From Solirubrobacterales bacterium (GTDB lineage Bacteria > Actinomycetota > Thermoleophilia > Solirubrobacterales > Solirubrobacteraceae), in assembly GCA_019240115.1 (NCBI GenBank), contig JAFAYV010000040.1, positions 1 through 41,240 on the forward strand: a DNA stretch of 41,240 bases, in the 5' to 3' direction. A program made the translations under genes and the position numbers. Below the pieces are notes generated by a model. The model was not told the origin of the DNA, did not search any database, and saw only the letters and a program-made list of their open reading frames with translations. Of the stretch, positions 172 to 7,069 are shown piece by piece (position 1 is the stretch's first letter; each line of letters opens with the position of its first letter).

Positions 172-273
172 AAAGCGCGCTCCCGCGCAGCCGGGCCGAT
201 CCACCGCTCCGCTCGCCCGACGACGCCCTGGATTGGCTCGCGGCCGGAGACGGACCCTATATTGAGCTGTGCG

Positions 274-1188
274 ATGACCGCCGACGCCAGCCAGCGACCG
301 AGCTCCGCGGCCGAGCTGGCCGACGGCCTGCGCGGCGTCGGCTATCTGCCCGGCGAGGCGACCGCGCTCGTCACCTTCCTGGCCATCAAGCTCGGCAAGC
401 CCGTGCTCGTCGAGGGCCCGGCGGGCGTGGGCAAGACCGAGCTGGCAAATGCCCTGGCCCGCTACCTGGACCGGACCCTCGTGCGCCTGCAGTGTTACGA
501 GGGGCTCGACGAGGCCAAGGCGCTGTACGAGTGGAACTACCGCAAGCAGCTGCTGCGCATCCAAGCCGAGGACGACGGGACCGCCTGGGGCGACGTTCAA
601 GACGACATCTTCGGCGAGGACTTCCTCCTCCCCCGCCCGCTCATGACCGCGATCGCCTCCGCGGAGCCCGTCGTGCTGCTGATCGACGAGATCGACAAGA
701 CCGACCAGGAGTTCGAGGCGATGCTGCTCGAGCTGCTCTCCGACTTTCAGATCTCGATCCCCGAGCTCGGCCGCATCGCGGCGCGCACCCGGCCGGTCGT
801 CCTGCTGACCTCGAACAACACCCGCGAGCTGACCGAGGCGCTCAAGCGCCGCTGCCTGTACCTGTGGCTCGACTACCCCGAGCTCGAGCACGAGCTGGCG
901 ATTGTGCGCCTGCACTCGCCGGGGCTCGACGAGACCGTGGCGCGCAAGCTCGTCGAGATCGTCAACCAGGTGCGCGGGCTCGACCTCAAGAAGCCGCCGA
1001 GCATCGCGGAGTCGATCGACTGGGCGCGGGCGCTGCTGCTGCTCGGCGCCCAGGACCTCGATCCCGACACGTTCCGCGAGACGATGAGCGTGATCGTCAA
1101 GCACCGCACCGACCTCGACACGGTCGCGGCGCGGGTCGGCGTCACGCTGCACGCCGCGGCCCCCGCCGGTGCCGGCCCCGGGAGCTAG
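274..1188 (+). CDS. MoxR-family AAA+ ATPase (CoxD-like)
   Basis: AAA+ ATPase of the MoxR group. It is expected to act as a chaperone-like remodeller that inserts metal or activates a target together with a VWA-domain partner. Counting from this ATG, the Walker A motif GPAGVGKT is at about residues 48-55, Walker B IDEIDK at 137-142, sensor 1 TSNN near 179, and an arginine pair KRR near 191. The protein is 304 aa, usual for single-domain MoxR. An in-frame TTG at 262 has a weak GGAG 12 bases upstream, so a four-residue longer form is possible. The 3' end overlaps the VWA gene by 20 bases, which implies translational coupling. In CO dehydrogenase loci this pair is CoxD/CoxE, but no molybdenum hydroxylase subunit lies nearby, so the client is unknown. 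Confidence 0.88.
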   Translation: MTADASQRPSSAAELADGLRGVGYLPGEATALVTFLAIKLGKPVLVEGPAGVGKTELANALARYLDRTLVRLQCYEGLDEAKALYEWNYRKQLLRIQAEDDGTAWGDVQDDIFGEDFLLPRPLMTAIASAEPVVLLIDEIDKTDQEFEAMLLELLSDFQISIPELGRIAARTRPVVLLTSNNTRELTEALKRRCLYLWLDYPELEHELAIVRLHSPGLDETVARKLVEIVNQVRGLDLKKPPSIAESIDWARALLLLGAQDLDPDTFRETMSVIVKHRTDLDTVAARVGVTLHAAAPAGAGPGS

Positions 1189-2620
1189 CGGGGGCCCGTC
1201 GCCCCGCCGGGCCGACGGCAGGGTCTACGCCCGGATCCCCGACCGCGCGCTGACCGGCCTCGATGGGCAGCTGCTCGAGTTCGCCGGCGACCTGCGCGAG
1301 GAGGGAATGGCGGTCGGGACCTCGGAGCTGCTCGACGCGTTCGCCGCGCTGCGCCACGTCGGCTGGAGTCGTCAGGCGGACTTCCGCGAGGCGCTCGCGG
1401 CGACCGTGGCCAAGTCGCCCGAGGACCGCCGCGTCTTCGACCTCGTCTTCGAGCGCTTCTTCTTCCGTGCCGCTGAGGCCGAGGCCTCGCGTCAGGGGGT
1501 CGGCGAGGGGTCGGCGCGCGGGCAGGCGGCCGACGAGCTCGAGCTCGACCTCGAGGAGCTGCGTCGCCAGATCGCCGCCGCGCTCGCCGAGGGCTCGGAG
1601 GCGCAGCTCGGCGATCTCGCCCGGCTGGCGATCGCCGCCTTCTCCCAGGGCGAGGGCTCCGGCGTGCTCGGGGTCGACGTGCAGCGGATCCGGCGCGCGC
1701 TCGGGCTGCGCACCGAGCCGCAGGCCGATCTCCCGCACGACGATCCCCGCCGTCATGGCGTGCCGCGCGAGCAGCTGCGGCGCTTCGAGCAGCAGCTGCG
1801 CCACGAGCTCGAGCGCGACCTGATCGAGCGCACCGCCAGCCTGCCGCCCAAGCGCCCGCTGTCCGAGCTGGACAGGGCTCTGCCCACCGGGCCGATCCAG
1901 GACCTGGCGGCCGTGCACCGCGTGGTCGCCCAGCTCAAGCGCCGCCTGGCCACCCAGGGCCGCGAGCGCAAGGGGCGGACCCCGCACGCACACGTCGACG
2001 TCCGGCGCACGATGCGGGCCTCGCTGCAGACCGGCGGGGTGCCGGTCGAGCTGCGCTACCGCCCGCGGCGGCCGCGGCGCCCGGAGATCTTCGTCCTCTG
2101 CGACGTCTCGACGAGCGTCACGAGCGCGAGCACCTTCTTTCTCAGCGTGCTGCACGCGCTCCACGACGCCTTTCGCAAGCTGCGCTCGTTCGTGTTCATC
2201 GAGCGGATCTCCGAGGTCACCGAGGTCTTTGAGCGCGAGCGCGACTTCCGCACCGCGTCGGAGGCGGTCTCCCGTGACGCCGGGGTCGCCGACATCTCGG
2301 GCTACACCGACTACGGGCGGGTGTGGACCGAGTTCCTGGCCGAGATCGAGGACGAGCTGCACCCTCGGGCGACGGTGATCGTGCTCGGCGACGCGCGCAC
2401 CAACGGCCGCCCGCCCCGCGACGATGTGTTCGCGGCGATCACCGCGCGCGCCGGACGGACGTTCTGGCTCAACCCCGAGCCCCGGCTGTACTGGAACTAC
2501 GGCGACTCGGTGATCGCCGCCTACGCCGAGCATTGCACGGCGTTCGAGTGCTGGAACACCGATGGACTCAGTGCGTTCGTCGATGCCCTGATGAAGCAAG
2601 GCCCCGGAGGACCCCGCTGA
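1169..2620 (+). CDS. CoxE-like VWA domain protein
   Basis: 483-aa protein with a C-terminal von Willebrand A domain. The metal-ion-dependent adhesion site is visible as D-V-S-T-S at about residues 312-316, and the region after it (residues 316-480) has the alternating hydrophobic strands of a Rossmann-like VWA fold. The N-terminal half is helical and charged. It matches the CoxE family that works with MoxR/CoxD ATPases. The GTG start at 1169 lies inside the ATPase gene (20-base overlap). Expected role: cytoplasmic adaptor presenting a client to the AAA+ ring. The client here is not identifiable from neighbours, because the next operon concerns thiamine precursor uptake and has its own riboswitch. 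Confidence 0.85.
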   Translation: MPAPGASGGPSPRRADGRVYARIPDRALTGLDGQLLEFAGDLREEGMAVGTSELLDAFAALRHVGWSRQADFREALAATVAKSPEDRRVFDLVFERFFFRAAEAEASRQGVGEGSARGQAADELELDLEELRRQIAAALAEGSEAQLGDLARLAIAAFSQGEGSGVLGVDVQRIRRALGLRTEPQADLPHDDPRRHGVPREQLRRFEQQLRHELERDLIERTASLPPKRPLSELDRALPTGPIQDLAAVHRVVAQLKRRLATQGRERKGRTPHAHVDVRRTMRASLQTGGVPVELRYRPRRPRRPEIFVLCDVSTSVTSASTFFLSVLHALHDAFRKLRSFVFIERISEVTEVFERERDFRTASEAVSRDAGVADISGYTDYGRVWTEFLAEIEDELHPRATVIVLGDARTNGRPPRDDVFAAITARAGRTFWLNPEPRLYWNYGDSVIAAYAEHCTAFECWNTDGLSAFVDALMKQGPGGPR

Positions 2621-2640: not shown

Positions 2641-2652
2641 GTACCGCGACGA

Positions 2653-2757
2653 GCAACCAGGGGAGCTGGCGGGCACGCCGGCTGAGATCGCGCCCCTCGC
2701 CCCGGCGACCCGACGCGGACCCTTCGAACCTGTGGGGTAATGCCCGCGGAGGGAGAT
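2653..2757 (+). promoter_or_regulatory. TPP (thiamine pyrophosphate) riboswitch, THI element
   Basis: The conserved THI-box elements occur in order: a GGGGAGC block at 2660-2666, CTGAGA at 2682-2687, ACCC at 2708-2711, the CCTTCGAACCTG block at 2721-2732, GGGTAATGCC at 2735-2744 and GCGGAGGGA at 2746-2754. Together they match the TPP aptamer closely, although the outer P1 pairing is not obvious by eye. The GGAGG ribosome-binding site of the next gene (2748-2752) is part of the aptamer's 3' side. Ligand binding would therefore be expected to hide it and block translation initiation, the usual mode in GC-rich actinobacteria. The class is certain from motifs; the mechanism is inference. Confidence 0.93.
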
Positions 2758-2760
2758 GCA

Positions 2761-3537
2761 GTGGCGATCGAGGCGCGACCCTCGCAGTCCGGAGAGCTTC
2801 ACGAACCGGACGCCGGCGACCTCGCGATCCGCGTCGAGTGCGTGAGCCGGACGTTCCGTCAGCGACGCGGCGACATCCCGGCGCTCGCGGAGGTCTCGCT
2901 GAGCGCGGCGCCCGGCGAGATCGTCGCCGTCGTCGGCCCGAGCGGCTGCGGCAAGACGACGCTGCTCGAGCTCATCTGCGGCCTCCAGCGTCCGGACTCC
3001 GGCCGTGTGCGGAGCGCTCCCGCGGCGCTCATGCCCCAGCGCGACCTGCTGCTGCCGTGGGCCTCGGCGCTCGACAACGCGGCGCTCGCGCTGCGGGCGC
3101 GGGGCGTGGCGCGCGACCGGGCGCGTGAGCAGGCGCGACCGTGGCTGCAGCGGTTCGGGCTCGCCGCGTTCGAGCGGGCGCGCCCGGCGGAGCTCTCGGG
3201 AGGGATGCGCCAGCGGATCTCGTTCCTGCGCTCGCTGCTCGCGGGCAAGCCGGTGCTCGCGCTCGACGAACCCTTCGCGTCGCTCGATGCGATCACGCGC
3301 GCCGAGATGCAGGGCTGGCTGGCGCGCGTGCTCGATGCCGAGCCGCGGACCGTCGTGCTCGTCACCCACGACGTCGAGGAGGCGGTGCTGCTCGCCGATC
3401 GTGTCGTCGTGCTGACCGCGCGCCCCGGCCGGGTCGCAGCCGAGCTGCCGGTCGCCGCGTCGCGGCCGCGGCGGCGGAGCGAGCCCGAGATCGTCGCGCT
3501 GCGCGAGCGCGTGCTCGAGACGCTGGGGGCGGCGTGA
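2761..3537 (+). CDS. thiZ: ABC transporter ATPase for thiamine precursor (ThiZ-like)
   Basis: ATP-binding subunit of an NMT1/THI5-type importer, expected to energise uptake of hydroxymethylpyrimidine (HMP) or a related thiamine precursor. The 258-aa product has Walker A GPSGCGKT (about 59-66), the signature LSGGM (145-149), Walker B ALDEPF (167-172) and the H-loop THD (202-204). It resembles the TauB/SsuB/ThiZ group. The GTG at 2761 is chosen because GGAGG sits eight bases upstream. The in-frame ATG at 2740 is the conserved TAATGCC segment of the TPP aptamer and is unlikely to be used. The stop overlaps the permease start by one base. Substrate assignment rests on the riboswitch and the third subunit. 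Confidence 0.88.
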   Translation: MAIEARPSQSGELHEPDAGDLAIRVECVSRTFRQRRGDIPALAEVSLSAAPGEIVAVVGPSGCGKTTLLELICGLQRPDSGRVRSAPAALMPQRDLLLPWASALDNAALALRARGVARDRAREQARPWLQRFGLAAFERARPAELSGGMRQRISFLRSLLAGKPVLALDEPFASLDAITRAEMQGWLARVLDAEPRTVVLVTHDVEEAVLLADRVVVLTARPGRVAAELPVAASRPRRRSEPEIVALRERVLETLGAA

Positions 3538-4313
3538 TGCGCCTGGCGGCGACGGCGCGCGCCGGCTGGCGGCCGGTGGCGGTGGTGGTGGCGCTGCTCG
3601 GCGCCTGGGAGCTCTACGTCGACCTCGGCGGCGCCTCGACGCTCATCCTCCCCGCCCCCCGCACGGTCGCCCAGTCGCTGTACGACGACCGCTCGCTGCT
3701 GTGGTCGAACTTCCTGGTCACCGCGCAGGAGGTCGTGCTCGGCATCCTCGTCGCGGCGGCGGCGGCGGTCGCGCTCGCCTGCGCGATGCACTTCTTCGCG
3801 GTCGTGCGCCAGTCGCTGTACCCGCTGCTGATCGCCTCGCAGACCCTCCCCATCCCGATGCTGGCGCCCGTGCTCGTCCTGTGGCTCGGCTTCGGGATCC
3901 TGCCCAAGCTCGTCGTCATCGCGGTCGTCTCGTTCTTCTCGATCGTCGTCACGACGCTCGCCGGGTTCGCCTCGGTGGACCCCGACCTGCTCAAGCTGAT
4001 GCGCACCTTCGACGCGCCCCGCCGTCGGGTGTTCTGGTCGATCGAGCTGCCGACGGCGCTGCCGGGGGTCTTCACCGGCGCCAAGATCACGGTCATCGTC
4101 GCGGTCATCGGCGCCGTCTTCGCCGAGCAGGCCGGCGCCAACTCCGGCCTGGGCTTCCTCTTCTCCGAATCGATCGCCCAGCTGCAGACCGCGCGCGCCT
4201 ACGCGACGGTCGTGCTGCTGTCGGCGTTCGCGATCCTGCTGTTCGCGGCGCTGACCGCCGCCGAGCGACTGGCCACGCCCTGGGCCCACCAACCGAAGGA
4301 GACTGGCTCATGA
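3537..4313 (+). CDS. thiX: ABC transporter permease for thiamine precursor (ThiX-like)
   Basis: 258-aa integral membrane protein of the BPD_transp_1/SsuC-like type with about six hydrophobic segments, the first near residues 13-30. A cytoplasmic EAA-like loop is visible around the segment RRRVFWSIELPTALPG, where the ATPase docks. The ATG overlaps the TGA of the ATPase gene (TGATG), and the end overlaps the substrate-binding gene in an ATGA, so the three subunits are translationally coupled. A GTG one codon upstream is an equally possible start. Length and topology are usual for ThiX/SsuC permeases. It forms the membrane channel of the riboswitch-controlled importer. Confidence 0.86.
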   Translation: MRLAATARAGWRPVAVVVALLGAWELYVDLGGASTLILPAPRTVAQSLYDDRSLLWSNFLVTAQEVVLGILVAAAAAVALACAMHFFAVVRQSLYPLLIASQTLPIPMLAPVLVLWLGFGILPKLVVIAVVSFFSIVVTTLAGFASVDPDLLKLMRTFDAPRRRVFWSIELPTALPGVFTGAKITVIVAVIGAVFAEQAGANSGLGFLFSESIAQLQTARAYATVVLLSAFAILLFAALTAAERLATPWAHQPKETGS

Positions 4314-5323
4314 GACGACGAATCGTCCCGCTCGCCGGCGCCGTGATCGCGGCCCTGGCGCTTGCCGCCTGCGGCGCCAAGCACGACCAGCTGCAGCCGT
4401 CGGCCGCGCGGTCCCAGAACCTGAGCCTGATGCTCGACTGGCTGCCCAACGCCGACCACGTCGGGATCTACGAGGCCCAGGCCGATGGCGCCTTCCGCGC
4501 CGCCGGGCTGAAGGTCGCGATCCGCACGCCGTCGGATCCCGCCTCTCCGCTCGGCCTGCTGCAGGCCGGCAAGGTCGACCTGGCGATCTCGTATGAGCCC
4601 GAGGTTCTGCTCGCCCGCGACCAGGGCGCCCCGCTGATCGCGATCGCGGCGCTCGTCCAGCGGCCGCTGACCTCGATCGTCTCGCTCGGGTCGGTCCACA
4701 TCACCTCGCCCGCGCAGCTGAAGGGCAAGCGCGTCGGCGACGCCGGGATCCCCTATCAGCACGCCTACCTGGAGACGATCCTGGACGGCGCGCATGTTCC
4801 GGCGAGCTCGGTCAAGGAGATCAACGTCGGCGACAACCTCGTCGGCGCGATGCTCTCGCACCGCGTCGACGCGACCCTCGGCGCCTACTGGAACTACGAG
4901 GCGATCGAGCTGCGTCAGATGGGACGGCTGGCCAACGTCATCCACGTCGAGAACGCCGGCGTGCCCGACTACGACGAGCTCGTGCTCGTCACCACCGAGA
5001 CCTTCTTCGCCCAGCACAACGCCGAGCTGCGGCGATTCGTGCAGGCGCTCGGACGCGGCTACGGGGCGGTGCGCGCCGATCCGCAGGCCGGCGTCCGTGC
5101 CCTGACCGATGCCAACCCGTCGCTGTCAGGAAAGCTGCAGCTGGCCAGCGTCCAGGCGACGCTGAGCTCCTACTTCCCTGCCGGCGACCACCCCTGGGGA
5201 TGGATGACGCCGGGGCAGTGGACGCGCTACGGCAGCTGGATGCTGGCCCACCACCTGATCCGCAACCCGGGCGCGGTCGTCGACGCCTCCGACAACGCGC
5301 TGCTGGCCGGCCAGGGCCCGTGA
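4310..5323 (+). CDS. thiY: NMT1/THI5-like substrate-binding lipoprotein (ThiY-like)
   Basis: 337-aa extracytoplasmic solute-binding protein. It opens with a lipoprotein signal: basic MRRR, a hydrophobic stretch, and the lipobox LAAC with the modified cysteine at residue 21. The mature part begins with LMLDWLPNADHVGIYEA, typical of the NMT1/THI5 family that binds HMP or similar pyrimidines, followed by the GLLQAGKVDLAISYEP core. AAGGAGA lies eight bases before the ATG, and the ATG overlaps the permease stop. This subunit and the upstream TPP riboswitch together support a thiamine-precursor importer. Which pyrimidine is bound (HMP, formylaminopyrimidine or another) cannot be told by eye. Confidence 0.88.
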   Translation: MRRRIVPLAGAVIAALALAACGAKHDQLQPSAARSQNLSLMLDWLPNADHVGIYEAQADGAFRAAGLKVAIRTPSDPASPLGLLQAGKVDLAISYEPEVLLARDQGAPLIAIAALVQRPLTSIVSLGSVHITSPAQLKGKRVGDAGIPYQHAYLETILDGAHVPASSVKEINVGDNLVGAMLSHRVDATLGAYWNYEAIELRQMGRLANVIHVENAGVPDYDELVLVTTETFFAQHNAELRRFVQALGRGYGAVRADPQAGVRALTDANPSLSGKLQLASVQATLSSYFPAGDHPWGWMTPGQWTRYGSWMLAHHLIRNPGAVVDASDNALLAGQGP

Positions 5324-5324
5324 C

Positions 5325-6134
5325 GTGGTCCTGCGGCGCGACGCCCGCGGCGTGCTGGCGGTCGGCCAGCCCGCTCACGCCTGGCTGTGCGGGCAGTTGG
5401 CCCGCGCCTGGGGCAACGAGCGCTTCGGCGAGGTGGTGCCGCTCGAGGCGGTGGCGCTCGGCGCCGAGCAGCACGACGTCGGCATGGCGGAGTGGGATCT
5501 GCGGCCCACGCGCGACCCCCGCACCGGGCTGCCCTATTCCTTCGCGCAGCTGCCGCTGACCGACGGCGTCGCGCTGTGGCGCGCCGGCCCGCGGCGCCTG
5601 ATCACCCAGAGCCGGTATGCGGCGCTCCTCGCGGCCCGGCACGGCCGCCGCCTGTACGAGCGCCGCGACCTCGCCGCGCTCGAGGCCGGCGAGGCCGCGC
5701 TCGTGGAGACGTTCCTCGCCGAGTCGCATGCGCTCGAGGCGGTCCTCGCCGACGGGCTCGGCGCCGATCCCGCGCTGCTCGCGCGCAACAGCCAGCTCGT
5801 CTGGACGTGGGACACGCTGTCGCTCGCGGTGCTGCTCGACTGGTCGCCGCTGACGCTGCGCGAGGTCCCGGCCGCCGCCGACTCGCTTGCCGTCGAGTCG
5901 CTCGACGTCGAGGTCCGCGCCGACGGCGAGGCGGTCCGGCTGGATCCGTGGCCGTTCGCCTCCGACCGCGTGCGCGTGCACTGTGAGGGTCGTCGGCTGA
6001 CCGGCGGCTGCGCGAGCGACCCCGAACTCGCCGAGGCGCTCGCGGTGGCGCCGTGGGAGACGTTCGCGGTGACGCTGACGCCGGGCCGCGCGAGCGTGTC
6101 GAGCAGCTCGCCCGAGCCGGCGGCCCACGACTAG
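5325..6134 (+). CDS. DUF3891 family protein in the thiamine operon
   Basis: 269-aa soluble protein that I recognise as DUF3891. Characteristic segments are QPAHAWLCGQLARAWG (about 15-30), ALGAEQHDVGMAEWD (44-58) and the central TWDTLSLAVL. The spaced His-18 and the His-Asp pair at 50-51 recall the metal ligands of HD-domain hydrolases, but this resemblance is by eye only. The GTG start lies one base after the stop of the ThiY-like gene, so the gene should be co-transcribed and co-translated with the riboswitch-controlled importer. That position suggests processing of the imported precursor, for example phosphate or amide hydrolysis, as an unproven idea. The 3' end meets the convergent glycosylase gene with only two bases between stops. 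Confidence 0.8.
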   Translation: MVLRRDARGVLAVGQPAHAWLCGQLARAWGNERFGEVVPLEAVALGAEQHDVGMAEWDLRPTRDPRTGLPYSFAQLPLTDGVALWRAGPRRLITQSRYAALLAARHGRRLYERRDLAALEAGEAALVETFLAESHALEAVLADGLGADPALLARNSQLVWTWDTLSLAVLLDWSPLTLREVPAAADSLAVESLDVEVRADGEAVRLDPWPFASDRVRVHCEGRRLTGGCASDPELAEALAVAPWETFAVTLTPGRASVSSSSPEPAAHD

Positions 6135-6136
6135 GC

Positions 6137-7069
6137 TCAGGCGGCGAGCCGCAGGCCGGCGCCGGCGCCCGCGCCGCGCAGCGCGTGCAGCCCCGCCAGC
6201 CCGCACCATGGCGCGTAGGGCGCGAAGAAGCGCTCGACCTCCTCGACGGTCGCGCGCGCGTCGGGATCGCCGCCGCCGGTCAGGCGGCCGACGAGCTTCA
6301 GGTAGCCGACGTCGGCCGCGGGGAGCTGATCGAGGCGGCCCTGCCCGGTCAGAGCGAGCATCTGCAGCGTCCAGGCGCCGATCCCGTGAATCCGGCGCAG
6401 CCGCCGCCAGCCCGACTCGTGGTCGACCCCGTGCAGGTCGACGCGCCCGGAGGCGACCTCGCGGCCGACGCGGACGAGCGCCATCGCGCGGGTCTCGGTC
6501 AACCCCAGCGACGCCAGCACGGCGGGCGCCTGCGTGGCGAGGACCGCCGCCGGCGGGCTGTCGCGCAGGCCGGTGCGCGGGCAGCGGCGGCCGAGGCGGG
6601 CGATCAGCCGCCGCTCGATGGCGGCCGCGCGCTCGTACTCGATCAGCTGCTCGCACACCGACCAGACGAGCGCCTCGAACGGGTCGGGGCGGCCCGACGC
6701 GCGCAGTCCCGGGTTTGCCCGGACCGCGGCGCCGATGAGCCGGTCGTGCGCGAAGCGCTCGTAGAACGGCCCGAGATCCTGATCGACGCCGAGCGAGCGG
6801 CCCACCTGCTCGATCCCCCAGTCGGCGAGCTCGCGCGAGGCGGCGCGCGCCCCGATGACGACGCGGTCGGCGGCGGGCTGGGCGACCCGGATCGTCACCG
6901 GCTCGGCGCCCTGGTGCAGGAGACGGTGCAGCACGCCGCGCCGCACCTGGGTCAGGCCGTCGAGCGAACGCCGGCGCGAGAGGCTGAACACCCACGCCGG
7001 GCGGATCTCGCGGCGAACCTCGACACCCCACCCGCGGGCGACGGCGGGCACCGCCCGCGAAGCGCTCAC
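6137..7069 (-). CDS. AlkA-like DNA-3-methyladenine glycosylase (HhH-GPD family)
   Basis: 310-aa base-excision repair glycosylase. The helix-hairpin-helix IHGIGAWT is at about 227-234, followed by the Gly/Pro/Asp loop LPAADVG with the likely catalytic aspartate at 253. The N-terminal half (residues 15-110) is a mixed domain like that of AlkA. It should excise alkylated purines (3-methyladenine and similar) in the cytoplasm. The GTG start overlaps the TGA of the upstream small membrane-protein gene (GTGA), so the two form an operon on the minus strand. No Ada or methyltransferase partner is adjacent. Substrate range within the AlkA/MpgII group cannot be resolved by sight. Confidence 0.85.
   Translation of the reverse strand: MSASRAVPAVARGWGVEVRREIRPAWVFSLSRRRSLDGLTQVRRGVLHRLLHQGAEPVTIRVAQPAADRVVIGARAASRELADWGIEQVGRSLGVDQDLGPFYERFAHDRLIGAAVRANPGLRASGRPDPFEALVWSVCEQLIEYERAAAIERRLIARLGRRCPRTGLRDSPPAAVLATQAPAVLASLGLTETRAMALVRVGREVASGRVDLHGVDHESGWRRLRRIHGIGAWTLQMLALTGQGRLDQLPAADVGYLKLVGRLTGGGDPDARATVEEVERFFAPYAPWCGLAGLHALRGAGAGAGLRLAA

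What the first reader, a model, noticed from the sequence alone, without database searches (positions are those of the whole stretch)
5325..6134. DUF3891 gene locked into a TPP-riboswitch thiamine-precursor operon
A gene of unknown function follows the ThiY-like binding-protein gene by a single base, in an operon whose leader is a clear TPP riboswitch. Its spaced His and His-Asp residues (18, 50-51) recall HD-type metal hydrolases. It could be an uncharacterised enzyme of thiamine salvage that processes the imported pyrimidine.
Basis: partly seen in the sequence, partly recalled or inferred. Interest (0 to 1): 0.68.

Follow-up and report, generated by a model that had tools for sequence, protein, structure and literature searches.

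The report
DUF3891: HD-fold metalloenzyme after thiamine operon
An uncharacterised gene sitting one base behind a vitamin-B1-controlled import operon very probably encodes a distant member of the HD metalloenzyme superfamily, but its tie to vitamin B1 is confined to a few genomes of one genus; across bacteria it lies far more often beside genes that break down nitrogen-ring compounds.

Summary
A full-length DUF3891 gene (PF13030, E 2.9e-47) starts one base after a ThiY-like gene, in an operon led by a TPP riboswitch (44.1 bits, below Rfam's gathering score, E 1.9e-6).

The HD hint is right. H18, H50-D51, H106 and D163 are invariant in 72 diverse homologues. AlphaFold2 gives pLDDT 94.6, the best structural neighbours are nearly all HD-domain proteins, and an HD profile matches far above shuffled controls.

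The thiamine reading is not supported for the family. The TPP-thiZXY operon is conserved across the bacterial family, normally without DUF3891. Its closest ThiY relative has alkA directly behind thiY. A TPP element within 6 kb upstream on the same strand occurs only in this genus (4 genomes), and a strong hairpin separates the two genes in one. DUF3891 also occurs without the thi transporter.

Elsewhere DUF3891 recurs beside an isochorismatase-fold hydrolase (16 pairs within 11 kb, about 1.0 expected), in clusters with hydantoinase, dihydropyrimidinase and nucleobase-permease genes. Best reading: an HD-fold metalloenzyme of nitrogen-ring or amide catabolism, here behind a pyrimidine importer. 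The window copy alone has Gly at position 81, often the extra His elsewhere. The substrate is unknown.

The parts
2649..2771 (+). TPP riboswitch aptamer (THI element). Its 3' part (GGAGGGAG, 2748-2755) overlaps the likely ribosome-binding site of the first gene
   Evidence: RF00059 44.1 bits, E 1.9e-6, all 105 model positions, gathering score 54.3; sequence
2761..3537 (+). thiZ-like ABC ATPase (likely GTG start 2761, in frame with the mechanical ORF start at 2740)
   Evidence: PF00005 E 1.6e-25; start inferred from the sequence
3537..4313 (+). thiX-like ABC permease, start overlapping the thiZ stop
   Evidence: PF00528 E 4.7e-29
4310..5323 (+). thiY-like NMT1/THI5 substrate-binding lipoprotein
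   Evidence: PF09084 E 2.1e-57; orthologues in most of 146 family genomes
5325..6134 (+). DUF3891 gene, 269 aa, HD-superfamily-like. Putative metal ligands H18, H50, D51, D163 plus H106; G81 and A104 are unique to this copy among 72
   Evidence: PF13030 E 2.9e-47; conservation; AF2 pLDDT 94.6; HD neighbours
6137..7069 (-). AlkA-like DNA glycosylase, convergent, closing the operon. The same neighbour follows thiY directly in relatives that lack DUF3891
   Evidence: PF06029 E 2e-6, PF00730 E 4.6e-5; L141, L148, L149

Best explanation
DUF3891 is a divergent HD-superfamily metalloenzyme. The first His, the His-Asp dyad and the distal Asp (H18, H50, D51, D163) are inferred to hold a divalent metal that activates water for attack on a small substrate. 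H106, and in about half of the family a His at position 81, could hold a second metal. Position -3 of the first His, Arg in HD phosphohydrolases, is an invariant Gln15, which argues for a substrate other than an ordinary nucleotide phosphate. The recurrent genome context suggests that the family works in breakdown of N-heterocyclic or amide compounds, next to isochorismatase-type amidohydrolases, hydantoinase/oxoprolinase subunits, dihydropyrimidinase and nucleobase permeases. In the window it probably rides on the thi importer transcript by read-through and translational coupling. It is not part of the conserved thiamine machinery, and its own metal site looks reduced. Shown by computation: family, motif, fold resemblance, context statistics and patchy thi linkage. 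Inferred: metal binding, hydrolysis, substrate class and co-transcription.
For: HD fold: nine columns invariant in 72 sequences from Actinomycetota, Bacillota, Halobacteria, Acidobacteriota, Cyanobacteriota and others, including H18, H50, D51, H106, D163. AF2 pLDDT 94.6, pTM 0.90. Of the first 32 VIA rows (Z 7.7 to 4.7) nearly all are HD proteins: PgpH, Bd1817, Cas3, GppA, PhnZ, HDDC2, YfbR, RelH, DatZ, TmpB. hhalign against PF01966 proteins pairs the HD dyads, score 37.5, against a maximum of 20.7 in 200 column shuffles. Motif rules and YqeK ligands H21 H50 D51 H83 H109 D127 are from PMC8177086. Context: 16 isochorismatase-DUF3891 pairs within 11 kb in 15 genomes against 1.0 expected; 5 within 1 kb, all same strand, against 0.14. 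hyuA-hyuB-isochorismatase-DUF3891 runs, NCS1 permease, dihydropyrimidinase and RutD/PcaD-like hydrolase. Thi link restricted to one genus.
Against: Foldseek alone found no significant structural match (best E 0.22), and VIA Z below 8 can reflect a common helical arrangement. No metal, activity or substrate was measured. The isochorismatase query was chosen after seeing it adjacent to DUF3891, one observed pair is the query's own locus, and some genomes are close kin. Hydantoinase B genes are abundant in these genomes, so their proximity alone means little. In the window's own clade the catabolic context is weak: a polysaccharide-deacetylase gene in two loci and a dihydropyrimidinase at 3-7 kb in two others. 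Several lineages (Rubrobacter next to an M42 peptidase gene, halophiles near a C6/C7 pair read as sucCD from sequence) show other neighbours.
Confidence: 0.6

Rival explanations
1. One reading: DUF3891 processes the imported thiamine pyrimidine (formylaminopyrimidine, HMP or its phosphate) under TPP riboswitch control.
For: One- and two-base spacing behind thiY in the window and L061, and linkage in four genomes of the genus. The window genome has no TenA match while some relatives do. The family-wide link to pyrimidine/hydantoin-type catabolism fits a pyrimidine-like substrate.
Against: The closest ThiY orthologue genome G636 has no DUF3891 at that site and none detected genome-wide, and G718 and G725 likewise. 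G749 and G568 have both TenA and DUF3891, while G636 and G718 have neither, so DUF3891 does not track TenA. A strong hairpin separates the genes in G568. G729 has DUF3891 without a ThiY orthologue. The window copy lacks the frequent His81.
Confidence: 0.12
2. An HD phosphohydrolase or phosphodiesterase acting on a nucleotide or second messenger, with no link to N-heterocycle catabolism.
For: Best structural neighbours include PgpH, YfbR, RelH and DatZ; most characterised HD proteins are phosphohydrolases or phosphodiesterases (PMC8177086).
Against: The phosphate-binding Arg three residues before the first His is an invariant Gln in all 72; the context points to amidohydrolases and nucleobase permeases.
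Confidence: 0.25
3. A PhnZ/MIOX-type mixed-valent di-iron oxygenase in the His81 branch of the family.
For: 39 of 72 sequences have His at position 81 as well as H106, giving H...HD...H...H...D, the oxygenase and YqeK pattern (PMC8177086). PhnZ and TmpB are among the structural neighbours.
Against: No YxxE loop was sought. Position 81 is Lys or Trp in other branches and Gly in the window. No partner hydroxylase was looked for.
Confidence: 0.1
4. The gene behind thiY is a passenger under relaxed constraint, on its way out.
For: Longest end branch in its clade (0.68 against 0.34-0.46 for the other four rows) and unique G81 and A104; patchy presence in the genus.
Against: Intact full-length ORF with high GC3 (0.96); all invariant ligands kept; model confident over nearly its whole length.
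Confidence: 0.15

Closest known systems
Pfam PF13030 (DUF3891)
   Same: Full-length match, all invariant residues of the family present
   Different: No function, solved structure or paper was found for the family here; the window copy is the only one of 72 with Gly at position 81
HD-domain metalloprotein superfamily (PF01966 and relatives; YqeK, YfbR, PgpH, PhnZ)
   Same: H...HD...D ligand pattern with an extra His, helical core, structural neighbours and profile match; spacing close to YqeK (21/50/51/83/109/127 against 18/50/51/81/106/163)
   Different: No member passes Pfam's HD cut-off (best E 0.1); QxxH replaces the RxxH of phosphohydrolases; an added C-terminal beta-rich part (strands 176-253)
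TenA / thiamine pyrimidine salvage (ThiXYZ, TenA, ThiD)
   Same: Genomic position behind a TPP-controlled ThiXYZ-type importer
   Different: No sequence match and no TenA among the structural neighbours listed; presence does not track TenA or the thi operon
Rut / hydantoinase-type N-heterocycle catabolic clusters
   Same: DUF3891 lies beside isochorismatase, HyuA/HyuB, dihydropyrimidinase, RutD-like hydrolase and NCS1 permease genes in several lineages
   Different: DUF3891 is not a named component of these pathways; the clusters' substrate is unknown; none of these genes adjoins DUF3891 in the window

Membership tests
Pfam DUF3891 (PF13030) | Score above the curated cut-off over the profile | tested here: met
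   161.7 bits against a cut-off of 24, profile 1-218 of 219
HD-domain superfamily | H...HD...D metal-ligand motif | tested here: met
   H18, H50, D51, D163 invariant in 72 of 72; motif definition from PMC8177086
HD-domain superfamily | Helical HD fold | tested here: inconclusive
   AF2 pLDDT 94.6; nearly all of the first 32 VIA rows are HD proteins but top Z is 7.7; Foldseek best E 0.22
HD-domain superfamily | Sequence-profile relation to known HD families | tested here: met
   hhalign 75% probability, score 37.5 against a maximum of 20.7 in 200 shuffles, HD dyads in register; no single member reaches the Pfam HD cut-off
HD phosphohydrolases | Arg three residues before the first His | tested here: not met
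   Gln15 in all 72; rule from PMC8177086
Dinuclear HD enzymes (YqeK, PhnZ type) | Six ligands H...HD...H...H...D | tested here: not met
   The window has Gly at position 81; 39 of 72 homologues have His there
HD-domain superfamily | Bound transition metal and catalysis | not testable with these tools
   Needs purified protein
Thiamine salvage (THI regulon) genes | Conserved linkage to TPP riboswitch or thi genes across genomes | tested here: not met
   TPP within 6 kb upstream on the same strand only in 4 genomes of one genus; thi operons mostly lack it
TenA (PF03070) | Sequence family match | tested here: not met
   Only DUF3891 matched the protein; the window genome has no PF03070 match

The most novel reading that the evidence does not exclude
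DUF3891 is a new branch of HD-fold enzymes that cleaves a C-N bond in N-heterocyclic or amide compounds (an HD amidohydrolase or iminohydrolase, compare the HD cyanamide hydratase Ddi2), and in this genus it has been recruited behind the TPP-controlled importer to process thiamine-derived pyrimidines.
Probability: 0.1. Interest if true: 0.75.

Novelty: new variant of a known kind. Interest (0 to 1): 0.45.

Why it matters
DUF3891 occurs in 60 of 396 sampled genomes of the phylum and in many other phyla and haloarchaea, and no paper in the library searched mentions it. Placing it in the HD superfamily and beside hydantoinase, dihydropyrimidinase and isochorismatase genes turns a blank label into testable chemistry: metal content first, then cyclic imides, ureides and pyrimidines. 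It also shows that one-base spacing behind a riboswitch operon is weak evidence of shared function.

Tried and rejected
Thiamine-salvage role as the family function: rejected on patchy linkage. TenA-like fold: no TenA among the structural neighbours listed (not proof of absence), and no sequence match. Replacement of TenA by DUF3891: rejected, as some genomes have both and some neither. Phage or plasmid cargo: no phage hit and only three plasmid records, two in Azospirillum. Foldseek searches of PDB and viral models gave nothing significant. Solved-structure sequence search gave nothing. Hydantoinase B proximity as a statistic: dropped because the gene is too abundant and the list was cut. Azospirillum context: no telling neighbours. 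In g19 and g28 genomes of another family a TPP element lies about 10-15 kb from DUF3891 on the opposite strand; convergent and too far for an operon, so not counted. Literature on PF13030: only malaria gene names.

Full report
What is in the window. ORF 5325-6134 is a full-length DUF3891 protein (PF13030, 161.7 bits, E 2.9e-47). It begins with GTG one base after the TGA of a ThiY-like NMT1/THI5 binding protein (4310-5323), itself preceded by a permease (3537-4313) and an ABC ATPase ending at 3537. The leader holds a TPP aptamer at 2649-2771: 44.1 bits, E 1.9e-6 in a local search, below Rfam's gathering score of 54.3, so a window-wide search at gathering threshold misses it. By sequence, the aptamer's 3' GGAGGGAG overlaps the likely ribosome-binding site of the first gene (GTG 2761), which suggests control at translation of that first gene; any effect on DUF3891 would then be polar. 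This is inference. No terminator-like site lies between thiY and DUF3891.

Is DUF3891 locked into thiamine operons? No. DUF3891 occurs in 60 of 396 genomes sampled across the phylum and 110 of 399 across the class. TPP elements were mapped in 140 of these genomes and in the genomes of 50 named loci, partly the same genomes. A TPP element upstream of DUF3891 on the same strand lies within 3 kb only in the window genome, G749 (L061) and G568, and 5.7 kb away in G737 (L060), all of one genus. ThiY matches occur in 139 of 146 genomes of the bacterial family, many of them distant, but strong orthologues are widespread. In the genus, the gene behind thiY is AlkA in G636 (closest ThiY, 69%), G718 and G831; a sigma factor in G828, G829 and G725; and other genes in G735, G825 and G827 (gene names here are read from the translations by homology knowledge unless a family search is cited). 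In G737 a potassium-channel-like gene intervenes. In G568 an 18-bp perfect hairpin (z -5.9) separates thiY from DUF3891. G729 has DUF3891 between unrelated genes and no ThiY orthologue. The thi-linked copies form one clade (92/88, drawn open) that also holds L062, whose contig ends 202 bp upstream. In L062 DUF3891 is followed by the alkA cluster gene as in the window, and the thiY of that genome lies on another contig with a different downstream gene. So the linkage looks like a single, partly broken event.

TenA does not rescue the thiamine reading. The window genome has no PF03070 match. G749 and G568 have both TenA and DUF3891; G636 and G718 have neither.

What DUF3891 is. A 72-sequence alignment spanning Actinomycetota, Bacillota, Halobacteria, Acidobacteriota, Cyanobacteriota, Methylomirabilota and others has nine invariant columns: Q15, H18, H50, D51, Y98, A99, L102, H106, D163. 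AlphaFold2 with this alignment gives pLDDT 94.6 and pTM 0.90. Foldseek reports nothing significant. VIA-align 2 on Foldseek's top 1000 puts PgpH, Bd1817, Cas3, GppA, PhnZ, HDDC2, YfbR, RelH, Rel and DatZ at the top; nearly all of the first 32 rows are HD proteins, though the best Z is 7.7, a level that alone could be a common arrangement. An independent test supports it: hhalign of the family against 20 PF01966 proteins from related genomes aligns the HD dyads with score 37.5, while 200 column-shuffled versions reach at most 20.7 and the reversed profile 10.6.

Active-site reading. A review of the HD superfamily (PMC8177086) gives H...HD...D for mononuclear phosphohydrolases, two extra His for dinuclear YqeK (H21, H50, D51, H83, H109, D127), H...HD...H...H...D for PhnZ/MIOX oxygenases, and an Arg three residues before the first His in phosphohydrolases. 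DUF3891 has H18, H50, D51, H106, D163 throughout. Position 81 is His in 39 sequences, Lys in 24, Trp in 7, Arg in one, and Gly only in the window. Position -3 is always Gln. I infer a metal site in all members, a possible second metal in the His81 branch, and a substrate unlike that of ordinary nucleotide phosphatases. Assignment of position 81 to the YqeK/PhnZ ligand rests on spacing, not on coordinates. The window copy has the longest branch in its clade and also A104 where 71 of 72 have Ser.

What it works with elsewhere. In several actinobacterial lineages DUF3891 lies in a conserved cluster: CoA-transferase III, HyuA (named by position and homology), HyuB (PF02538), isochorismatase (RutB and biuret-hydrolase models at low score), DUF3891, an alpha/beta hydrolase (PcaD/RutD models below cut-off), an NCS1/cytosine-purine-type permease and an ABC importer. 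A dihydropyrimidinase (TIGR02033, above cut-off for L093) is 181 bp away in L110 and 3-7 kb away in L093, L064 and L068. A test over 78 DUF3891-positive genomes with this isochorismatase found 88 homologues, 16 within 11 kb of DUF3891 in 15 genomes against 1.0 expected, and 5 within 1 kb, all same strand, against 0.14. The caveats are that the query was chosen because it was adjacent, one pair is the query's own locus, and some genomes are kin. Short contigs make the count conservative. The five closest pairs fall in three families (f6, f18, f8).

Conclusion. DUF3891 is very probably an HD-superfamily metalloenzyme (my estimate 0.88 for that alone). A role in N-heterocycle or amide breakdown is the best-supported family-level guess but remains a guess. 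The window gene is a genus-level neighbour of a thiamine-precursor importer. A function in thiamine salvage is possible but unsupported. That both contexts involve pyrimidine-like molecules is suggestive and no more.

Noticed in passing
L083 3238-10789, L112 2091-18783, L096 1000-19436, L094 2-10041: Conserved catabolic cluster CoA-transferase III, hyuA, hyuB, isochorismatase, DUF3891, alpha/beta hydrolase, NCS1 permease, ABC importer, of unknown substrate (not every gene in every locus).
   Followed up: partly
L110 328-10803: DUF3891 next to dihydropyrimidinase, luciferase-like monooxygenase, FAD oxidoreductase, isochorismatase and a DAO-GCV_T fusion (sarcosine/dimethylglycine-dehydrogenase-like).
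   Followed up: no
L206 3055-3099: 18-bp perfect inverted repeat between thiY and DUF3891 in G568, z -5.9, no T tract.
   Followed up: partly
L208 4041-16261: Halocatena salina plasmid: DUF3891 between a divergent amidohydrolase gene and genes annotated MMPL transporter and BrxA, with a Piwi-domain gene nearby.
   Followed up: no
L064, L082: Two public MAG records titled Bifidobacterium breve carry DUF3891 genes that group with Solirubrobacter-type or other actinobacterial MAG sequences; the titles look wrong.
   Followed up: no
window 262-2620: MoxR-type AAA ATPase (closest NCBIfam model MadB, below cut-off) followed by a CoxE-type VWA protein, just upstream of the riboswitch.
   Followed up: no
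G089, G132, G427, G447, G458, G510 (genus g19) and G329: In another family of the class a TPP element lies about 10-15 kb from DUF3891 on the opposite strand; shared synteny, not an operon.
   Followed up: partly
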